Source of the DNA: Gemmatimonadaceae bacterium | GTDB lineage: Bacteria; Gemmatimonadota; Gemmatimonadetes; Gemmatimonadales; Gemmatimonadaceae | Assembly (NCBI GenBank): GCA_037721215.1 | Contig: JBBJNV010000019.1 | Coordinates: forward strand, 1 to 64,000 | Length of the DNA stretch: 64,000 bases | Reading direction: 5' to 3' | Shown: positions 4,066 to 14,969 of the stretch, piece after piece | How the letters are laid out: each line of letters begins with the position of its first letter | Numbering within the stretch: position 1 is the first letter of the stretch | Translations under genes and position numbers: made by a program | Notes under the pieces: model-generated | Told to the model about the DNA's origin: nothing | Databases searched by the model: none | What the model saw: the letters and a program-made list of their open reading frames with translations, nothing else

Positions 4066-5043
4066 TCAGCCCAGCCGTCTTAGCCGGAATGCAAGGCCGT
4101 TCCACATCATGAATGGTCGTTCGCCCCCGCATATGACGCTGAAACCATTTTCCGAAGCAAGACGGTTCACATCAGACCTGTCGGCGTCATCGAGCCCGCG
4201 ATACGAAAAGTTGAGGATGACGAAGTCGCCCCCGGGTTTCACGACTCGTGCAACTTCGGCGAAATGATCTGAAACGAGCGTCATCCCGGACTGATAGAGA
4301 TAGGGAAAGGTGTCCACCGCAATTGCCGCATCGAACTTCGCGTTGTCATAAGGACCGAGATTCCGGCCATCGCCCTTTATCAGCCGCACATTCGAAAACG
4401 GCAGGCACCGTCGTTCCGCCGCCCCGATCATCTGCGCAGACACGTCGATACCGTAAACCTCGCGGACGCGCGGCGCCAGGGCGACTGCGAGGCGCCCGAT
4501 TCCACACCCTATGTCGAGAATCACCCGGTCTGCCGCAATCACGCCCGCACTCTCGAGATACGACGTGATTTCCTGCGTTGCGCGCTCGAGCAGCTCGGGA
4601 CTGCCGAGCGAATAGAGCGCAACACTGGCTTCTTCCGATTGCTGAACGGACCAGTCGAACAACCTTTCACAGAACGCAATTCCATCGTCGACAGAACGCG
4701 CTGGCGAAGGCGAGTCCATGTTGGATCGCAGCATTTCCACGATCCTGTCGCAACCTGATGCATTGTCGACAACGAGTTGCGTCAACTCATCCACTCTGTC
4801 CCGCAGAAGGCTGTCATTTGAACGTGAAAGATTCGCGGCACGAGCAGTAATGTTGTCGATTGCCGACTGCACGGCAGCCGCGTCTTCGGTTTCGATCAGC
4901 ATTTGCATCACCGCTACCGCCGGTGACAATTCGCCTCCGAGGCAGCGCTCGAGAATCTCACGCATCGCCGGAGCTTCGATGCCACTTACGAGCCTCTTTA
5001 CTGCTTCTGCCTCGACGCCGGCCCGCGCGGTCAGCCCAGCCAA
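4066..5043 (-). CDS. SAM-dependent methyltransferase (class I) with helical N-terminal extension
   Basis: 325 residues. The C-terminal 170 residues are a Rossmann methyltransferase: motif I V-I-L-D-I-G-C-G-I-G-R-L, motif II region V-Y-G-I-D-V-S, G-D-G-R near motif III, then D-A-A-I-A-V-D-T and V-K-P-G-G-D-F-V-I-L-N-F. The first 130 residues are helical and acidic with no named domain. It overlaps the upstream ATP-grasp gene by 13 bp, so it is the last gene of a three-gene operon. Target unknown; by context it probably acts on the product of the neighbouring ligase. Confidence 0.85.
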   Translation of the reverse strand: MAGLTARAGVEAEAVKRLVSGIEAPAMREILERCLGGELSPAVAVMQMLIETEDAAAVQSAIDNITARAANLSRSNDSLLRDRVDELTQLVVDNASGCDRIVEMLRSNMDSPSPARSVDDGIAFCERLFDWSVQQSEEASVALYSLGSPELLERATQEITSYLESAGVIAADRVILDIGCGIGRLAVALAPRVREVYGIDVSAQMIGAAERRCLPFSNVRLIKGDGRNLGPYDNAKFDAAIAVDTFPYLYQSGMTLVSDHFAEVARVVKPGGDFVILNFSYRGLDDADRSDVNRLASENGFSVICGGERPFMMWNGLAFRLRRLG

Positions 5044-6332
5044 CCCAGCTCTCTCAGGCAGGCATAATCGTGATTCATCAGTCGCATGCCGATATCGTTC
5101 CGGTAGCGTGCATTCGGAACGACGACCTTATCAACGCGTCCATATGCCTGCGTTCTCGCATCTTCGACGGAGGCGCCGGTGCCGGTCACGACCATGATGT
5201 AGCCGACCATCCCGGCCGCGACCAGCTGGCCGTTGCTCATCGTCACTTCTCCGTAATGAACGGCATCGAGCTCCGCCGTGGCCAGCGGCTCACGGAAGCA
5301 TATCGGCGTTCCCTTGCCCAGTTCAGCGTAGCCGTCGGAATATGGAAACGGCGGAACCGTGATGACCACGCCGACTGAATAGCCATCGGACGTTCTGATC
5401 TCAAGGGAGTCGCGCGCTACCAGAGAAGAATGTATGGTGTCCCATGTATCGTGGTGCAACGCATCGAGAATCGGAAATCCCGGGTATCCGAATCTGCAAG
5501 TGAACTCCAGCGGCCAGATGCCGTCGGCGTTTATAATAGTGTTCAGATTGATATAGCCGCAGTACCCGGACTCCCTCAGCGGTCGCGCCATTCTCGCCAG
5601 GCTGGCATCGAAAATTCGCTCTCCCCCGCGATATGTCACGACCGTTCCCATCTCGCCGGTCAATTCGCCGATATCGCCCGGAAAAAAACGCTTGTGTTCC
5701 CAGTCGAGATTGGGCGGCGACAGGAACTCCTCGCCATTGAAAAACGCTCCGACTCCCACTTCCACACCTGAAACGTGGTCCATCAGCACGAAATTCGGCG
5801 CCTCGTCGGGGGTCCAGTTATTCCGCGACGCCGTCAGCAGGGCCACCATATCGGTTCCATCATCGGTCTGGCCGACATAGGCCCGGGTTGATGCCCAACT
5901 CGATCCGTTGAGCTTGAATACATAGCGCCCGGGATTGCACCTCGTGAACGTGATTCCGTCATCGAAGCTCTCGAACGTTCGGCTGATCGCGGTCTGAAGG
6001 CCTGCACCTCTGAGCATCGACTGGCCATATTCGCGATCGGTCTCGAGCCGGTCGCCGAGTTCGCTGCCTCCGACGACGTTGTATCCCTCCCGGCGTAAAC
6101 CGTCCTGGATTGCGCCGGATGATGCGGTCTCGAAAAGAATGATGCCGTCCGGACCAGCCGCCCTGATCCATCCCAGCTCGTTTTGCCAGTCAGCGGTGAA
6201 TTCCAGCATTCCCTGCATGACATCCTGCGAGTTGACATCGGAGGCGTGTACCCTGACATCGTGACCGCCGGCCTGAAGACGCAGGTACATGTCACCCAGG
6301 TCGACCGTCTCGCCGACCCCCAGGAATCTCAC
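5031..6332 (-). CDS. ATP-grasp ligase, PurD (GAR synthetase)-like
   Basis: 433 residues with the layout of phosphoribosylamine-glycine ligase: an N-terminal Rossmann-like part (M-R-F-L-G-V-G-E), an ATP-grasp core with V-F-K-L-N-G-S-S (nucleotide-contact lysine), D-H-V-S-G-V-E-V-G-V and P-L-E-F-T-C-R-F-G-Y-P (metal/ATP-binding E-x-N-x-R-x-G equivalent, with T-C replacing the usual N), and a C-terminal GARS-C-like domain. It is too divergent to be housekeeping PurD and lies between two methyltransferases, so I read it as a ligase of a dedicated pathway making an amide bond from an ATP-activated carboxylate. Substrate unknown. It overlaps both neighbours (4 and 13 bp). Confidence 0.82.
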   Translation of the reverse strand: MRFLGVGETVDLGDMYLRLQAGGHDVRVHASDVNSQDVMQGMLEFTADWQNELGWIRAAGPDGIILFETASSGAIQDGLRREGYNVVGGSELGDRLETDREYGQSMLRGAGLQTAISRTFESFDDGITFTRCNPGRYVFKLNGSSWASTRAYVGQTDDGTDMVALLTASRNNWTPDEAPNFVLMDHVSGVEVGVGAFFNGEEFLSPPNLDWEHKRFFPGDIGELTGEMGTVVTYRGGERIFDASLARMARPLRESGYCGYINLNTIINADGIWPLEFTCRFGYPGFPILDALHHDTWDTIHSSLVARDSLEIRTSDGYSVGVVITVPPFPYSDGYAELGKGTPICFREPLATAELDAVHYGEVTMSNGQLVAAGMVGYIMVVTGTGASVEDARTQAYGRVDKVVVPNARYRNDIGMRLMNHDYACLRELGWLG

Positions 6333-7351
6333 CGGGAGGCTGTCGCCATGGACTCAATTGGACCATGCAGAAAAGCACGCAACCTCAGCTCGTCCCATCT
6401 GTCGAGGAGCGACGTGCGGATGGCAAACGGCGCCGAGGGTTTGACCAGCGCCGCAATGCCAGTGCGCGCGAACCGGGAGCACAGCGCCTCTACCGCCGCT
6501 GCTGCCGATCCGCCAGCATCTTCATTCGTCTTCTCGAGCGAGAATTCACCCGCCATCAGCAGGTAAACAAACCGCGCAGCACCATCCGGCGCGGCCACTG
6601 AAATAGTGTCATGATGATCGTTCAGATAGGCGGTCTGAAGCGTACGCAGATACCCGTGCACCGATCCGGAGTATTCACCATCCGCTATCGCCACGACAAA
6701 CAGAGAATTCAACCTGTAACCGCAGCGCGCAGCTTCAGCGACGATCCGGGCCGGGTCCGAAAGGCTGCACCACGACAGCGCGAGTGCCCGCGGTTTCACA
6801 CGGCGCACAATCCGCAGCGCACAAAGCAGGTGCGCGGTCCCGTCAGCTCCCGATCCAGCTTCCATTGCCAGCCGCTCCCCGGGAGGCTCCGGAATGTACG
6901 GCGGATTGCATACAATGAGATGCGGCCGGTCTGCAAGCAGCATCTCCGTCGTGCTGGTCGACCACAGGTCTGCACACTTGAAACGCGCCCGGTCGGAGAG
7001 CCCCAGGAACGATGCATTTTCAGTTGCGGTCGTCGCCGCCCCGGCGTCGATGTCCAATCCGAGCAATGCGCTGTTGCGCTCGACCCTGAGAAGGTGCAGC
7101 CCCACCAGTCCGCTGCCGGACGTAAGCTCGGCTATCCTCGTTCGCTCGGTGCCATTCCGTGAGGCTGGGCCACGCGACCTTGCGTGGGATAGGGCAGCCT
7201 CGGATGCACACTGGCACAGCAGCGTATCCTCAGGAGAGAAGAACGACGTGAACCGGAATGGAGGCCGGAATGCGCGCAGTCGGCCGGCTTCCGCAATCAG
7301 GGACGGAAGTTCACGGGACGGCGGAACGGGCCTGCCAAATCGATACGGCAC
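6329..7351 (-). CDS. PrmC/HemK-like methyltransferase (NPPY type)
   Basis: 340 residues. A class I SAM fold with I-A-E-L-T-S-G-S-G-L-V-G-L (motif I), L-L-G-L-D-I-D (acidic end of beta-2) and I-V-C-N-P-P-Y-I-P-E-P, the NPPY motif of enzymes that methylate planar amide or amino nitrogens (PrmC, N6-adenine methylases). It lacks PrmC's usual N-terminal domain and carries about 100 extra C-terminal residues, so release-factor methylation is unlikely. Start is GTG at 7351. Only about 31 bp separate it from the oppositely oriented start at 7383, so the promoters must overlap or lie within the genes. First gene of the three-gene operon. Confidence 0.82.
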   Translation of the reverse strand: MPYRFGRPVPPSRELPSLIAEAGRLRAFRPPFRFTSFFSPEDTLLCQCASEAALSHARSRGPASRNGTERTRIAELTSGSGLVGLHLLRVERNSALLGLDIDAGAATTATENASFLGLSDRARFKCADLWSTSTTEMLLADRPHLIVCNPPYIPEPPGERLAMEAGSGADGTAHLLCALRIVRRVKPRALALSWCSLSDPARIVAEAARCGYRLNSLFVVAIADGEYSGSVHGYLRTLQTAYLNDHHDTISVAAPDGAARFVYLLMAGEFSLEKTNEDAGGSAAAAVEALCSRFARTGIAALVKPSAPFAIRTSLLDRWDELRLRAFLHGPIESMATASR

Positions 7352-7382
7352 GAGGGATCGTTTTCAGATAAAGAGGAGGCGC

Positions 7383-7466
7383 ATGTCTTGCAAAGCTTCC
7401 GAGTGGATGTCGTCAAATGCAAACGGCGCACCGCTCCCAGGCGGACCGTCTTATTCTCCGGGTTAA
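7383..7466 (+). CDS. possible 27-residue peptide, candidate modified-peptide precursor
   Basis: A strong ribosome-binding sequence (AAGAGGAGG at 7371-7379) lies 3 bp before ATG 7383. The 27-codon frame starts M-S-C-K-A-S-E-W-M-S-S-N and ends G-G-P-S-Y-S-P-G before TAA. The stop is 5 bp from the ATG of the diiron enzyme, as in translationally coupled genes. Position beside an HDO, an ATP-grasp enzyme and two methyltransferases is what a RiPP-type precursor would show. Against it: the same Shine-Dalgarno is better spaced (8 bp) for a TTG at 7388 in the HDO frame, so this could instead be N-terminal extension or leader. Not resolved from sequence alone. Confidence 0.4.
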   Translation: MSCKASEWMSSNANGAPLPGGPSYSPG

Positions 7467-7471
7467 ACTCA

Positions 7472-8596
7472 ATGCTGAAGTCGATTGAACTGCCCACGGT
7501 TCCGCTTCTCCTGCAGCCGGCAACCCCGGCCTCGGATTCAGCGGAAACTTTTGCGCAACGTTTGCAGGGCCTGCTCGGGGATCCCGATCTCGACGCACTG
7601 CTGGGCTTGAACCCGGGCCTCGAAGATGAGCTGGTTCTTACCGCCCGGCGGCTGGCTGCACTCGCGTATCCCGCCACGCAATCCACACGCCGCCATACCG
7701 ATTCGTGGATCGATCATGGCGCTCGCGCCAGTCTGCACAGATCACTTCTGGTTCTCTATCAACAGCATATGCGTTTACCCGGTGATTCCGGTCTCGAAAA
7801 CCAGTTTCATCCGTTGCCCTGCCGCTTGATCAGGGAGCTCGAGCAGCCATGGGAGCGCGACATGCTGCGGCGGGCGAATGCATCGCACAATCTTTCCGCC
7901 GATGCGTTGCCCTTGGAGCCGGGAGCATTTGCTGCGTGGTATCGTGCAGCGGCGTTCAGTCATCCACTGTACGAACACGACCTCTACGGCTTCGTCGCCA
8001 GCGATGCAACGCGCGCTCAGCTCAAGTGGTTCTTTGAAATGGAATGCGCCGGTGAAGCAGCGTTCGACGATCTGGTCGCGCTTGCACAGGTTGGAACCCG
8101 TGGCGAAATCAAAATGGAGATGGCCACGAATTACTGGGACGAGATGGGCAAGGGTCGCAGTCACGCTGTACACACCCACCTCTTCCATACTCTGATCGAG
8201 GGCCTGGACCTCATCCCGCCAGACGCGATGCAGCTCCCTTGGCAGGTGTTGTCGGGTGTGAACGTGATGCTCTGGAGCTGCATATCCCGCCGCAATGCCT
8301 TCCGCGCTCAGGGCACCCTCGGTGCAGTCGAGTTACTGGCACCGCAGCGCTGCACGCGTCTTGTGCATGGCGCAATCCGCCTGGGAATGAAAAAGAAAAC
8401 GATGATTTACTATGGCGCTCACGCGATCATCGACATCGGCCATGCTGAAGGATGGCTCGCCCATGTGATCGAGCCGCAGGTTCGCGAGCACCCGGCAGCG
8501 CGGGTTGGTATAGCGGAGGGGTTGATTCTGCGAGCGGATACGAGCCTCGACTACTTCGATTATTGCCTGGCGCGCGCCAGAGCAATTGCGGCCTGA
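7472..8596 (+). CDS. haem-oxygenase-like diiron oxidase/oxygenase (iron-containing redox enzyme family)
   Basis: 374 residues from ATG 7472. The helical C-terminal half has the pattern of HDO-fold enzymes: F-F-E-M-E-C-A-G-E (187-195), N-Y-W-D-E-M-G-K-G (220-228), H-T-H-L-F-H (234-239) and Y-G-A-H-A-I-I-D-I-G-H (314-324), supplying candidate Glu, His and Asp ligands for two irons. Family members oxidise or cleave amino-acid-type substrates (UndA, BesC, SznF central domain) using O2. The first 150 residues are an extra domain I do not recognise. A longer frame from TTG 7388 is possible. Divergent from the methyltransferase/ATP-grasp operon, suggesting one pathway. Confidence 0.83.
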   Translation: MLKSIELPTVPLLLQPATPASDSAETFAQRLQGLLGDPDLDALLGLNPGLEDELVLTARRLAALAYPATQSTRRHTDSWIDHGARASLHRSLLVLYQQHMRLPGDSGLENQFHPLPCRLIRELEQPWERDMLRRANASHNLSADALPLEPGAFAAWYRAAAFSHPLYEHDLYGFVASDATRAQLKWFFEMECAGEAAFDDLVALAQVGTRGEIKMEMATNYWDEMGKGRSHAVHTHLFHTLIEGLDLIPPDAMQLPWQVLSGVNVMLWSCISRRNAFRAQGTLGAVELLAPQRCTRLVHGAIRLGMKKKTMIYYGAHAIIDIGHAEGWLAHVIEPQVREHPAARVGIAEGLILRADTSLDYFDYCLARARAIAA

Positions 8597-8621
8597 GCCG
8601 AATTACTGCTGAAGAAAAAAA

Positions 8622-9563
8622 TTACGGGGTAGCGGCACCCACGATCACCATCGCCCCTGTAGGAGCAGGTACACCCCCGGCCGGCTCGTCGGTAATAGCG
8701 ACCGCGCGCAGCGCGTTACGATCGAGCGCGTATTTGGCACGCAGAACAGTCCGTCCCCGAGCATCAGGTTCGAAGGTGCCCGCAGAAATCTTTGCGCTGT
8801 CGGTGACGAGCCATACCTGGTACGTGCGGCCGGGCTTCAGAGACGGAAGACCGGATGCTATCATCGTCCAATCGTCCGACGCGCGGTTCCAGAACATCTG
8901 CGCCTGCGGCTGCCGGGCTGATTCGCTGGCCAGCGAAACAACCTTCACGTCCGAGCCGGTCATCGCCGCCACCAGCGCATTCGACTCGGCCAGCGATGCC
9001 GCAAGGCTGTCCGCGCGCGTGGCATCGCCGCCGCGGGCCGCGAGCTGATCGCGCATCGCATTGCGATCAGCGGTCACCCGGAACAATTGCGCGCTTGCCG
9101 CCGCCAGCAGCAGTGTTGCGGCAATCGCGAGCCAGTTCGTGCGGGATGCCGGACCCCGCTCGTTACCGGGTTGCCGGATCGGCCGCACAGGTTGCTGCAT
9201 GCGGGCTTCCGGCGCAGCTGCTTGCGACGACGTCGGCGATACCCTGTGACCCTGACCCGCCAGACTCGCGACTCCGTGTAAAAGATCGGGCTTGCGGCCC
9301 GATGCGGCCCGTGCTTTTCGCTCACTTCCGGCGCGCACGATGAGACGGGAACGAACCCCTGCACTCCGGCCGGGACTCATTTCACTATGAGGCACCAGCT
9401 GCCCGAGCAGCGCCATGGTCGCTTCCATCGAAGCCAGCTCGGGCCCGCATTCCGGGCACACCGACGCATGCGCGCGAACGGCATCGGCGATCTCGACTTG
9501 TCCAGCATCGAGCGCGACGGCGGCCAGCTCGGAGTACGCCTCCTCGTGGCTGAGTTCTGTCAC
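8622..9563 (-). CDS. RskA-type anti-sigma factor
   Basis: 313 residues. The N-terminal zinc-binding anti-sigma domain shows H-A-S-V-C-P-E-C (HxxxCxxC), which holds the sigma factor. A single membrane helix follows (W-L-A-I-A-A-T-L-L-L-A-A-A). The C-terminal periplasmic part has the RskA pattern: W-T-M-I-A-S-G-L-P, Y-Q-V-W-L-V-T-D, A-I-T-D-E-P-A-G-G near the end. Its start overlaps the stop of the upstream ECF sigma gene by 4 bp, so the pair is translated together. The signal sensed is not readable. Confidence 0.9.
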   Translation of the reverse strand: MTELSHEEAYSELAAVALDAGQVEIADAVRAHASVCPECGPELASMEATMALLGQLVPHSEMSPGRSAGVRSRLIVRAGSERKARAASGRKPDLLHGVASLAGQGHRVSPTSSQAAAPEARMQQPVRPIRQPGNERGPASRTNWLAIAATLLLAAASAQLFRVTADRNAMRDQLAARGGDATRADSLAASLAESNALVAAMTGSDVKVVSLASESARQPQAQMFWNRASDDWTMIASGLPSLKPGRTYQVWLVTDSAKISAGTFEPDARGRTVLRAKYALDRNALRAVAITDEPAGGVPAPTGAMVIVGAATP

Positions 9564-13835: not shown

Positions 13836-14969
13836 ATGCCGAGCGGTGACGACATGATACGGCCGTACAGAATGGCCGACGATGATGAATCAGACGATCT
13901 CGGCGGTGGCGGAGGCGGTGGTGGATTTGGGCGCCGGAAACGGTCGTACGATGACGAGGAAGACGAAGAGAACGGTGGCTGGGCCATCAATGAGGATCAC
14001 AGCGATCGTCTATGGGACAGCGCGGAAGAGGTCGACGAAGATGACGACGAAGAGACGACGACCACTGAGGGTGAGGACGCTGAGGAAGAAGAGGAAGAGG
14101 AAGATGTTTTCGGGGGCGGGGCTCCGCGCGGCCGCAGAGGCCGTCCAAAAGGGTCTACCGCCGCGAATCGGGAGAAGCAGCTGATGGCTACTACACGAAC
14201 GCCGCGTGACGCCGCGAATGATGCCGCCGCTGGTGAGACTTCTCTTTTCGACGATGATGTCGCAGGAGGGGATGCCGAGGCTGGTGCGGCGCTTGCGGAA
14301 TCCAGCGCGGACTCGGATGGCGATGAGGATGATCTTGATTCGGAGGAAGCGTCCGATGCGCCTGCAGCGCGTGATGCCGCTTCCGCAAACGGCGGTGCAA
14401 AGTCCAGAGGACGAAAATCGTCGTCGGCGGCTGGAAAGTCAGGCGGACAGTCGACAGGTAAGTCGGCTGCAGGTAAGTCGGCTGCAGGTAAGTCGGCTGC
14501 AGGCAAGTCGGCATCCGGCAAACCGGCATCCGGCAAACCGGCATCCGGCAAACTAGCATCCGGCAAGTCGGCAACCGGCAAGTCGGCAACCGGCAAGTCG
14601 GCAACCGGTAAGTCGGCAACCGGCAAATCTGCCGGGAGTTCAGCAGGCAAGTCTGCGACAAAAGGAAGCTCTGCCAGTAAATCGAAGTCTGCACCGTCAA
14701 GACCAACTGGCAAAAAAACAGCTACAAAGCAGGGCACACCCAGGAAACTCGGCGCAAAGAAATCCGGCGCGACGAAATCCACGGCACGAAAAGGCGCCAC
14801 TGAATCGAGAAGCGGAACCGCGAAAAAAACCTCCGCAGCGCGGGGCGGGAGCCAGGTTTCCGCGCGAAAGACCCAGTCCGTGGCATCCGCTCGCAAAAAC
14901 ACTGGCAGCAGGAAAACCGGCAGTGCCGGAAAGACCGGACGCAGTGGCTCCCGGAGCGGCCGGAGGTAA
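13836..14969 (+). CDS. acidic / AT-hook / Lys-Ser-Ala repeat protein (HMGA- or histone-H1-like)
   Basis: 377 residues of low complexity. Residues 1-95 are acidic with an eight-glycine run; residues 99-106 read G-R-R-G-R-P-K-G, a canonical AT-hook (R-G-R-P core) for A/T minor-groove binding. Another acidic patch spans about 140-175. The rest is basic, with eleven tandem pentapeptides K-S/P/L-A-x-G and then K-A-S-T-rich sequence ending G-R-S-G-S-R-S-G-R-R. This acidic-plus-hook-plus-basic design recalls eukaryotic HMGA and the tail of myxobacterial CarD. Probably a chromosome-organising protein; the CarD RNAP-binding domain is absent. Preceded by GGGAGACC at a suitable distance. Confidence 0.8.
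   Translation: MPSGDDMIRPYRMADDDESDDLGGGGGGGGFGRRKRSYDDEEDEENGGWAINEDHSDRLWDSAEEVDEDDDEETTTTEGEDAEEEEEEEDVFGGGAPRGRRGRPKGSTAANREKQLMATTRTPRDAANDAAAGETSLFDDDVAGGDAEAGAALAESSADSDGDEDDLDSEEASDAPAARDAASANGGAKSRGRKSSSAAGKSGGQSTGKSAAGKSAAGKSAAGKSASGKPASGKPASGKLASGKSATGKSATGKSATGKSATGKSAGSSAGKSATKGSSASKSKSAPSRPTGKKTATKQGTPRKLGAKKSGATKSTARKGATESRSGTAKKTSAARGGSQVSARKTQSVASARKNTGSRKTGSAGKTGRSGSRSGRR
14460..14624 (+). repeat. 11 tandem 15-bp repeats inside the AT-hook gene
   Basis: Eleven in-frame copies of a 15-bp unit (consensus AAGTCGGCAACCGGC, with GCTGCAGGT and GCATCCGGC variants) encode K-S-A-A-G, K-S-A-S-G, K-P-A-S-G, K-L-A-S-G and K-S-A-T-G. Identical neighbouring copies suggest recent slippage or unequal crossing-over, so copy number probably varies between strains. 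Confidence 0.93.

What the first reader, a model, noticed from the sequence alone, without database searches (positions are those of the whole stretch)
4066..8596. Unassigned biosynthetic-looking locus: HDO diiron enzyme, PurD-like ligase, NPPY methyltransferase and second methyltransferase
Four enzymes that rarely sit together except in specialised metabolism form two divergent transcription units with about 30 bp between starts. HDO enzymes oxidise amino-acid-like substrates, a GARS-type ATP-grasp enzyme makes amide bonds, and two different methyltransferases would tailor the product. No named pathway matches this set to my knowledge.
Basis: partly seen in the sequence, partly recalled or inferred. 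Interest (0 to 1): 0.75.

Follow-up and report, generated by a model that had tools for sequence, protein, structure and literature searches.

The report
Small diiron-oxygenase, methyltransferase and ligase cluster
A four-gene cluster in an uncharacterised bacterium couples an iron enzyme that probably oxidises the side-chain nitrogen of an amino acid to two methyl-adding enzymes and an amide-making enzyme derived from purine synthesis; its core recurs in several unrelated bacterial groups, so it is probably a real, undescribed small-molecule pathway.

Summary
The four ORFs exist and belong together. A (HDO, 7472-8596 +) is divergent from an overlapping B-C-D operon (NPPY methyltransferase, PurD-like ATP-grasp, second methyltransferase). 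In 19 genomes of the genus, six have A and the same six have C; the other 13 have neither, and three of them keep decayed remnants at the same spot. A, B and C also recur together in Myxococcota and on a Sphingomonas plasmid; A and B alone recur in three family members and, as shorter homologues, on other proteobacterial plasmids. So the set is layered: A+B core, C common, D local.

A's nearest solved relative by sequence and fold is HrmI (lysine N-oxygenase), far ahead of other HDOs, with all six metal ligands invariant. C is a PurD paralogue that lost PurD's signature motifs; the genome has a true PurD. New: sigma-54-like sites before A in all seven C-bearing loci of the family.

Best reading: N-oxygenation and methylation of a basic amino acid, then amide formation. 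Substrate (lysine- or arginine-like) and product are unproven. HDO + ATP-grasp clusters are a known kind (belactosin, mangotoxin); this is a new variant.

The parts
7472..8596 (+). A: heme-oxygenase-like diiron enzyme (HDO), 374 aa, HrmI-like. Predicted 3H/3C ligands E191, E224, H234, H317, D321, H324 (numbering from the ATG at 7472)
   Evidence: PF14518 E 1.9e-31; HrmI E 6.4e-57; fold Z 36 to HrmI; ligands invariant in 10 relatives and HrmI
6329..7351 (-). B: NPPY-motif methyltransferase of the HemK/PrmC/MTS type (NPPYIPEPP)
   Evidence: PF05175 and TIGR03534 (55 bits, below cut-off); HemK and N6AMT1 among best solved relatives; a homologue lies beside the HDO in the family, Myxococcota and several plasmid loci
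5031..6332 (-). C: PurD-like (GARS-type) ATP-grasp ligase, 433 aa, not PurD
   Evidence: GARS_A and GARS_C over cut-off; purD model 108 bits against cut-off 288; PurD fold Z 29-34; PurD motifs lost
4066..5043 (-). D: class I SAM methyltransferase with an unassigned N-terminal domain of about 120 aa; start codon uncertain (TTG 5043 or later)
   Evidence: Methyltransf_25 E 1.5e-18, residues 175-272; conserved in family relatives
7377..7392 (+). sigma-54-like -24/-12 site AGGCGCATGTCTTGCA, 79 bp before A
   Evidence: GG-N10-GC core found 67-88 bp before A in 7 of 7 C-bearing loci of the family; RpoN in 8 of 8 genomes
7418..7433 (-). second, weaker sigma-54-like site CGGTGCGCCGTTTGCA facing B, 66 bp before B
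   Evidence: same form in L023, L025 and L061; weaker or displaced in the other three

Best explanation
The locus is a small stand-alone biosynthetic pathway. A, a HrmI/BelK-like diiron N-oxygenase, uses O2 to oxidise a side-chain nitrogen of a basic amino acid (lysine-like by homology; arginine-like is possible). B, an NPPY-type methyltransferase, methylates the same molecule, probably on nitrogen. C, a PurD paralogue with a changed substrate site, activates a carboxylate with ATP and joins it to an amine to make an amide. D, a clade-specific second methyltransferase, decorates the product. A and B-C-D are read from two divergent, probably sigma-54-dependent promoters. Shown here: gene order, co-occurrence, layered conservation, family assignments, intact diiron ligands, loss of PurD motifs. 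Inferred: every reaction, the substrate, the order of steps and the promoter type. Step confidences: A is a diiron oxygenase or oxidase 0.95; it oxidises a nitrogen 0.6; substrate lysine-like 0.35; B acts on the same molecule 0.75; C forms an amide in that pathway 0.6; sigma-54 control 0.55.
For: HDO: HrmI is the best solved match by far (E 6.4e-57 nearly full length; next 7.9e-4) and by fold (Z 36.0, rmsd 3.0, 329 residues; next FlcD 26, RohS 22.5, SznF 21.8); 42 columns including all six ligands and R273, E287, R293, N264 are shared with HrmI in all ten members. HrmI/BelK turn L-lysine into 6-nitronorleucine (PMC13108848, PMC10764440) and belactosin uses ATP-grasp ligases beside BelK (PMC10764440). 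Co-occurrence. HDO-linked C proteins are one side of a supported branch, separate from stand-alone paralogues (99/100). C also sits beside a type III polyketide synthase, a methyltransferase and an aminotransferase in Roseomonas, which fits a biosynthetic ligase. Other ATP-grasp partners beside the related HDO-MTase pair: cyanophycin synthetase in Sphingobium and an ATP-grasp-like protein in Komagataeibacter and Variovorax. In-place decay in relatives is typical of a dispensable, specialised pathway.
Against: The HDO is only 28% identical to HrmI and lies in its own branch, not clearly nearer to HrmI types than to the short HDOs that sit with arginine-deiminase-family enzymes, so lysine cannot be assumed. 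No dedicated redox partner, transporter, carrier protein or resistance gene lies in the locus. C has lost the glycine-rich loop GLAAGKG and the Asn of PurD's EFN motif (EFT here), so ATP use is likely but not certain. The HDO-MTase pair lives without C or D in three genomes.
Confidence: 0.5

Rival explanations
1. The substrate is arginine or an arginine-containing conjugate: B methylates the guanidine (as SznE does in streptozotocin synthesis) and A hydroxylates it (as SznF does), or A oxidises an arginine residue as MboA does in mangotoxin, with an arginine-deiminase-family enzyme acting in some lineages.
For: An arginine-deiminase/DDAH-family gene lies between HDO and C in L007, and its homologue (41% identity) is fused to the methyltransferase and followed by the HDO on a Legionella plasmid. 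In Sphingobium yanoikuyae the methyltransferase-HDO pair follows cyanophycin synthetase, isoaspartyl peptidase and cyanophycinase, i.e. arginine polymer metabolism. Mangotoxin has HDO + two ATP-grasp ligases + an arginine deiminase (PMC13185094).
Against: No such enzyme in the window locus or in L065/L066; no homologue of it in the own genome at E 1e-5. The arginine links are all in the short-HDO branch, not in the own branch. The fold is nearer HrmI than SznF.
Confidence: 0.27
2. A nitrocyclopropane-type pathway like belactosin or hormaomycin: A nitrates lysine and a 2-oxoglutarate oxygenase cyclises it before ligation.
For: HrmI-like HDO; ATP-grasp ligases in belactosin (PMC10764440); HrmI-type HDOs on Streptomyces and Paraburkholderia plasmids do sit near a 2OG-Fe dioxygenase.
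Against: No 2OG-Fe oxygenase in the locus, and none of family PF10014 in ten of eleven carrier genomes including the own one.
Confidence: 0.03
3. C is a working GAR synthetase or other purine enzyme, and the cluster is an accident of position.
For: GARS_A and GARS_C domains, PurD fold.
Against: True PurD elsewhere (E 3e-75); purD model 108 bits against a cut-off of 288; GxGxREHA, GLAAGKG, NTGGMG, EFN and GDPETQ motifs lost; C sits beside an HDO in every relative of 48% identity or more whose neighbourhood was read.
Confidence: 0.02
4. Two partly independent things share the spot: an A-B(-C) oxidation/ligation cassette, and D, a methyltransferase with a job of its own. (This concerns D only and can hold together with the best explanation for A-B-C.)
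For: D survives alone in L059 (G397) after loss of A-B-C, and its N-terminal domain alone survives in L058 and, beside intact A-B-C, in L025; D was not found outside the family.
Against: D overlaps C and is kept, in order, in six of seven C-bearing loci of the family including another genus.
Confidence: 0.3

Closest known systems
HrmI / BelK (hormaomycin and belactosin lysine N-oxygenases)
   Same: Full-length fold and 3H/3C diiron ligands; best solved match to A
   Different: 28% identity, separate branch; no cyclopropanase partner; here paired with a methyltransferase
Mangotoxin cluster mboABCDEF
   Same: HDO with ATP-grasp ligase; an arginine-deiminase-family enzyme in related loci (L007, Legionella) (PMC13185094)
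   Different: No MboB-like reductase, ligase is PurD-derived, two methyltransferases; MboA did not appear among the sequence matches of A
Belactosin A cluster
   Same: BelK-type HDO plus ATP-grasp ligation (PMC10764440)
   Different: No PF10014-type (BelL/HrmJ-like) oxygenase in the genome, no DapF-like gene in the locus
PurD (GAR synthetase)
   Same: Domain make-up and overall fold of C
   Different: Signature substrate and ATP motifs lost
Streptozotocin SznE/SznF
   Same: Idea of a methyltransferase paired with an HDO N-oxygenase
   Different: SznF is 3H/4C with a cupin domain (PMC13108848); B is of the NPPY/HemK type; fold similarity of A to SznF lower (Z 21.8)

Membership tests
HDO superfamily (PF14518) | PF14518 domain and heme-oxygenase-like fold | tested here: met
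   109.7 bits, cut-off 28.9; fold match
HDO superfamily (PF14518) | 3 His / 3 carboxylate dimetal ligand set | tested here: met
   E191, E224, H234, H317, D321, H324 invariant in 10 members and HrmI; assignment by alignment, not by a metal-bound structure
HrmI/BelK lysine N-oxygenase | Closest sequence and fold to HrmI among solved HDOs | tested here: met
HrmI/BelK lysine N-oxygenase | Groups with HrmI rather than in a separate branch | tested here: inconclusive
   Own branch beside HrmI types, 87/82 support, long branches
HrmI/BelK lysine N-oxygenase | Oxidises L-lysine to N6-hydroxylysine and the nitro product | not testable with these tools
   needs enzyme assay
Belactosin/hormaomycin nitrocyclopropane pathway | Partner 2OG-Fe cyclopropanase (looked for as PF10014) | tested here: not met
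   absent from G000 and nine other carriers
Mangotoxin-type cluster | Flavin/Fe2S2 reductase MboB and deiminase MboE in the locus | tested here: not met
   no such ORFs at the locus; no homologue of the L007 deiminase in G000
Mangotoxin-type cluster | HDO next to an ATP-grasp ligase | tested here: met
PurD (GAR synthetase) | GARS_A and GARS_C domains, PurD fold | tested here: met
PurD (GAR synthetase) | PurD equivalog score and signature motifs | tested here: not met
   108 against 288 bits; motifs lost
PrmC/HemK glutamine methyltransferase (for B) | NPPY motif and MTS-type core | tested here: met
PrmC/HemK glutamine methyltransferase (for B) | Equivalog score of TIGR03534 | tested here: not met
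   55 bits against 199
sigma-54 promoter (upstream of A) | GG-N10-GC core with TTGC, conserved at the same place, RpoN present | tested here: met
   7 of 7 loci; dinucleotide shuffles reach the score in 0-3.3% of cases for six, the seventh (L024); RpoN in 8 of 8 genomes
sigma-54 promoter (upstream of A) | RpoN-dependent transcription | not testable with these tools
   needs transcript mapping

The most novel reading that the evidence does not exclude
The HrmI-like HDO and the NPPY methyltransferase are an undescribed two-enzyme cassette, spread over several phyla, that makes an N-oxygenated, methylated basic amino acid and is combined with interchangeable ATP-grasp ligases (a neofunctionalised PurD here, cyanophycin synthetase or an unassigned ATP-grasp protein elsewhere) to give a new family of small amides, under sigma-54 control in the window's family.
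Probability: 0.3. Interest if true: 0.7.

Novelty: new variant of a known kind. Interest (0 to 1): 0.5.

Why it matters
If right, purine-pathway PurD has been recruited as an amide-forming ligase in secondary metabolism, and a compact four-gene set (small enough to express whole) gives a direct route to a new N-oxygenated metabolite from a poorly studied group. The recurring HDO + NPPY-methyltransferase pair would be a genome-mining handle: it flags candidate pathways in Myxococcota, acetic acid bacteria, sphingomonads and Legionella without needing NRPS or PKS genes.

Tried and rejected
Defence system: only generic methyltransferase hits to mad2 in PADLOC, none for A or C. PurD function for C: rejected on score, motifs and a separate true PurD. 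Flanking permease, PAP2, GNAT and anti-sigma genes as members: rejected, they stay in place in relatives that lost the locus. PF10014 partner: absent. Paper searches for PurD-like ligases or HDO + ATP-grasp + methyltransferase clusters gave no description of this set; the list of 25 cluster types in the mangotoxin paper's supplement could not be read, so the set may be in it. A scan of 378 genomes of the phylum of L006 with the C profile found no further close relative. The one scan of named genomes gave only two relatives. The HrmI structure paper is not held, so the lysine-contacting residues could not be compared one by one. The organism of the window was not identified; I suspect Gemmatimonadota but did not test it. 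My simple gene caller chose antisense ORFs near A in L073 and L075; the B genes there were found by tblastn.
Full report
WHAT IS THERE. Four intact ORFs lie at the stated place. A is an HDO (PF14518, E 1.9e-31), B a methyltransferase with NPPYIPEPP (PF05175; nearest named model PrmC at 55 bits, cut-off 199), C a protein with GARS_A and GARS_C domains (TIGR00877 purD 108 bits, cut-off 288), D a class I SAM methyltransferase whose first ~120 residues match no Pfam family. B and C overlap by 4 bp (GTGA) and C and D by 13 bp, so B-C-D is one operon. Homology to relatives starts at the ATG at 7472 for A, which leaves 120 bp between the two start codons.

DO THEY BELONG TOGETHER. In the own genus and family the order A-B-C-D recurs in L022, L023, L024 and L026, with D cut to its first ~100 residues in L025; G396 has A-B-C and the start of D on one contig (L061) and D on another (L062). 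Identities to the window are 48-72% and the reading frames are open, so selection has kept them. In 19 genomes of the genus the HDO is in six, and the same six have a strong C hit. The other 13 have neither, though several of those genomes are incomplete. Three non-carriers keep remnants between the same flanking genes: D alone (L059), the N-terminal part of D (L058), fragments of B and C (L060). So the locus is old in the genus and has been lost in place several times, which is how dispensable pathways behave. The flanking genes (anti-sigma, sigma, GlnA on one side; PAP2, permease, GNAT on the other) stay in non-carriers and are therefore background.

OUTSIDE THE GENUS. Among 377 genomes drawn from the phylum of L007 (Myxococcota), three have a close C, and in all three an HDO and an NPPY/MTS methyltransferase sit beside it (L007, L065, L066). 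B and these methyltransferases are homologous over the catalytic core (hhalign probability 97%, E 3.9e-11). The same triad lies on a Sphingomonas daechungensis plasmid, with C and the HDO each in two frames, so possibly decayed there. An Acidovorax MAG has C beside a quite different HDO, with no B seen. Within the own phylum the HDO occurs in 9 of 390 genomes; three of the nine (L073, L074, L075) have the divergent A-B pair with no C or D. Short HDOs with a related methyltransferase next to them also occur on plasmids of Komagataeibacter, Variovorax, Sphingobium and Legionella; some plasmid HDOs of Novosphingobium have no such neighbour. The layered picture is: A+B core, C common, D local.

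PARTNERS ELSEWHERE. In Sphingobium yanoikuyae the pair follows cyanophycin synthetase, isoaspartyl peptidase and cyanophycinase. In Komagataeibacter and Variovorax it lies beside a ~360-aa protein with ATP-grasp-like sequence (my reading of the letters; no Pfam hit; 45% identity between the two). In L007 an arginine-deiminase/DDAH-family gene sits between HDO and C, and its homologue is fused to the methyltransferase ahead of the HDO in Legionella. These make recruitment of different ligases and a basic-amino-acid substrate plausible, and they are the ground for the arginine rival. They concern the short-HDO branch, not the window's own.

WHAT A DOES. A profile of ten relatives finds HrmI in the PDB at E 6.4e-57 over nearly its whole length; the next match is 7.9e-4. 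The AlphaFold2 model (mean pLDDT 79.5) aligns to HrmI with Z 36.0 over 329 residues at 3.0 A, ahead of FlcD (26), RohS (22.5) and SznF (21.8). The six ligands expected of a 3H/3C HDO are invariant in all ten and in HrmI. HrmI and BelK oxidise the side-chain amine of lysine to a nitro group, via N6-hydroxylysine for HrmI (PMC13108848), and belactosin is built with ATP-grasp ligases (PMC10764440). At 28% identity this supports N-oxygenation of an amino-acid side chain but not lysine as such.

WHAT C DOES. The model (pLDDT 88.8) is a PurD fold (Z 29-34) ahead of PurK, PurT and PylC (about 23-24.5). Against the genome's own PurD and Bacillus PurD, C lacks GxGxREHA, the GLAAGKG loop, NTGGMG (LTGEMG instead), EFN (EFT) and GDPETQ (GYPG). 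The HDO-linked C proteins are separated from stand-alone paralogues by a supported branch (99/100). C's nearest relative without an HDO, in Roseomonas, sits in a type III polyketide synthase set. I conclude a recruited amide ligase; its two substrates are unknown.

REGULATION. The A-B spacer is mostly diverged but keeps GG-N10-GC/TTGCA blocks. A -24/-12-like site in A's direction lies 67-88 bp before A in all seven C-bearing loci of the family; shuffles reach the score in 0-3.3% of cases in six of them (in L024 the site lies just outside the stretch used and is). A weaker facing site lies before B in four loci. RpoN is present in all eight genomes tested. The scoring matrix was approximated from the published consensus from memory, the loci are related, and in the window as a whole such sites are not rare, so the argument rests on conservation of place. 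An operator with inverted TTGCA boxes would look similar.

KNOWN OR NEW. HDO + ATP-grasp clusters are known in number (PMC13185094), with belactosin and mangotoxin characterised. I found no description of an HDO with an NPPY methyltransferase or with a PurD-derived ligase, but most subscription papers and the relevant supplement were out of reach. Hence: new variant of a known kind, interest 0.5.

Noticed in passing
L058 7373-7822, L025 10441-10746, L059 4973-5956: The N-terminal ~100-120 residues of D survive as separate short ORFs in two relatives, and full D survives alone in a third; this domain matches no Pfam family and may act on its own.
   Followed up: partly
L097 6071-7900: Legionella sainthelensi plasmid protein of 609 aa fuses an arginine-deiminase-family domain to the HDO-associated methyltransferase, directly upstream of the HDO.
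   Followed up: partly
L089 3674-4753 and L094 about 7649-8674: ATP-grasp-like protein without any Pfam hit, beside the methyltransferase-HDO pair in Komagataeibacter and Variovorax.
   Followed up: partly
L031 7419-10756: A stand-alone PurD-like paralogue (36% to C) lies directly after carbon-nitrogen hydrolase and agmatine-deiminase-type (PAD_porph) genes; other stand-alone copies in the same order have other neighbours.
   Followed up: no
L086 2792-8449: Roseomonas plasmid: a C homologue (44%) amid type III polyketide synthase, methyltransferase, FAD monooxygenase and aminotransferase genes, a possible amide-forming polyketide cluster.
   Followed up: no
L061 and L062 (G396): G396 carries a second, diverged C fragment with an intact D on another contig: a second copy or strain mixture.
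   Followed up: no
window 13836-14969: ORF with an acidic N-terminus and a long lysine/serine/alanine/glycine repeat tail resembling histone-like basic tails.
   Followed up: no
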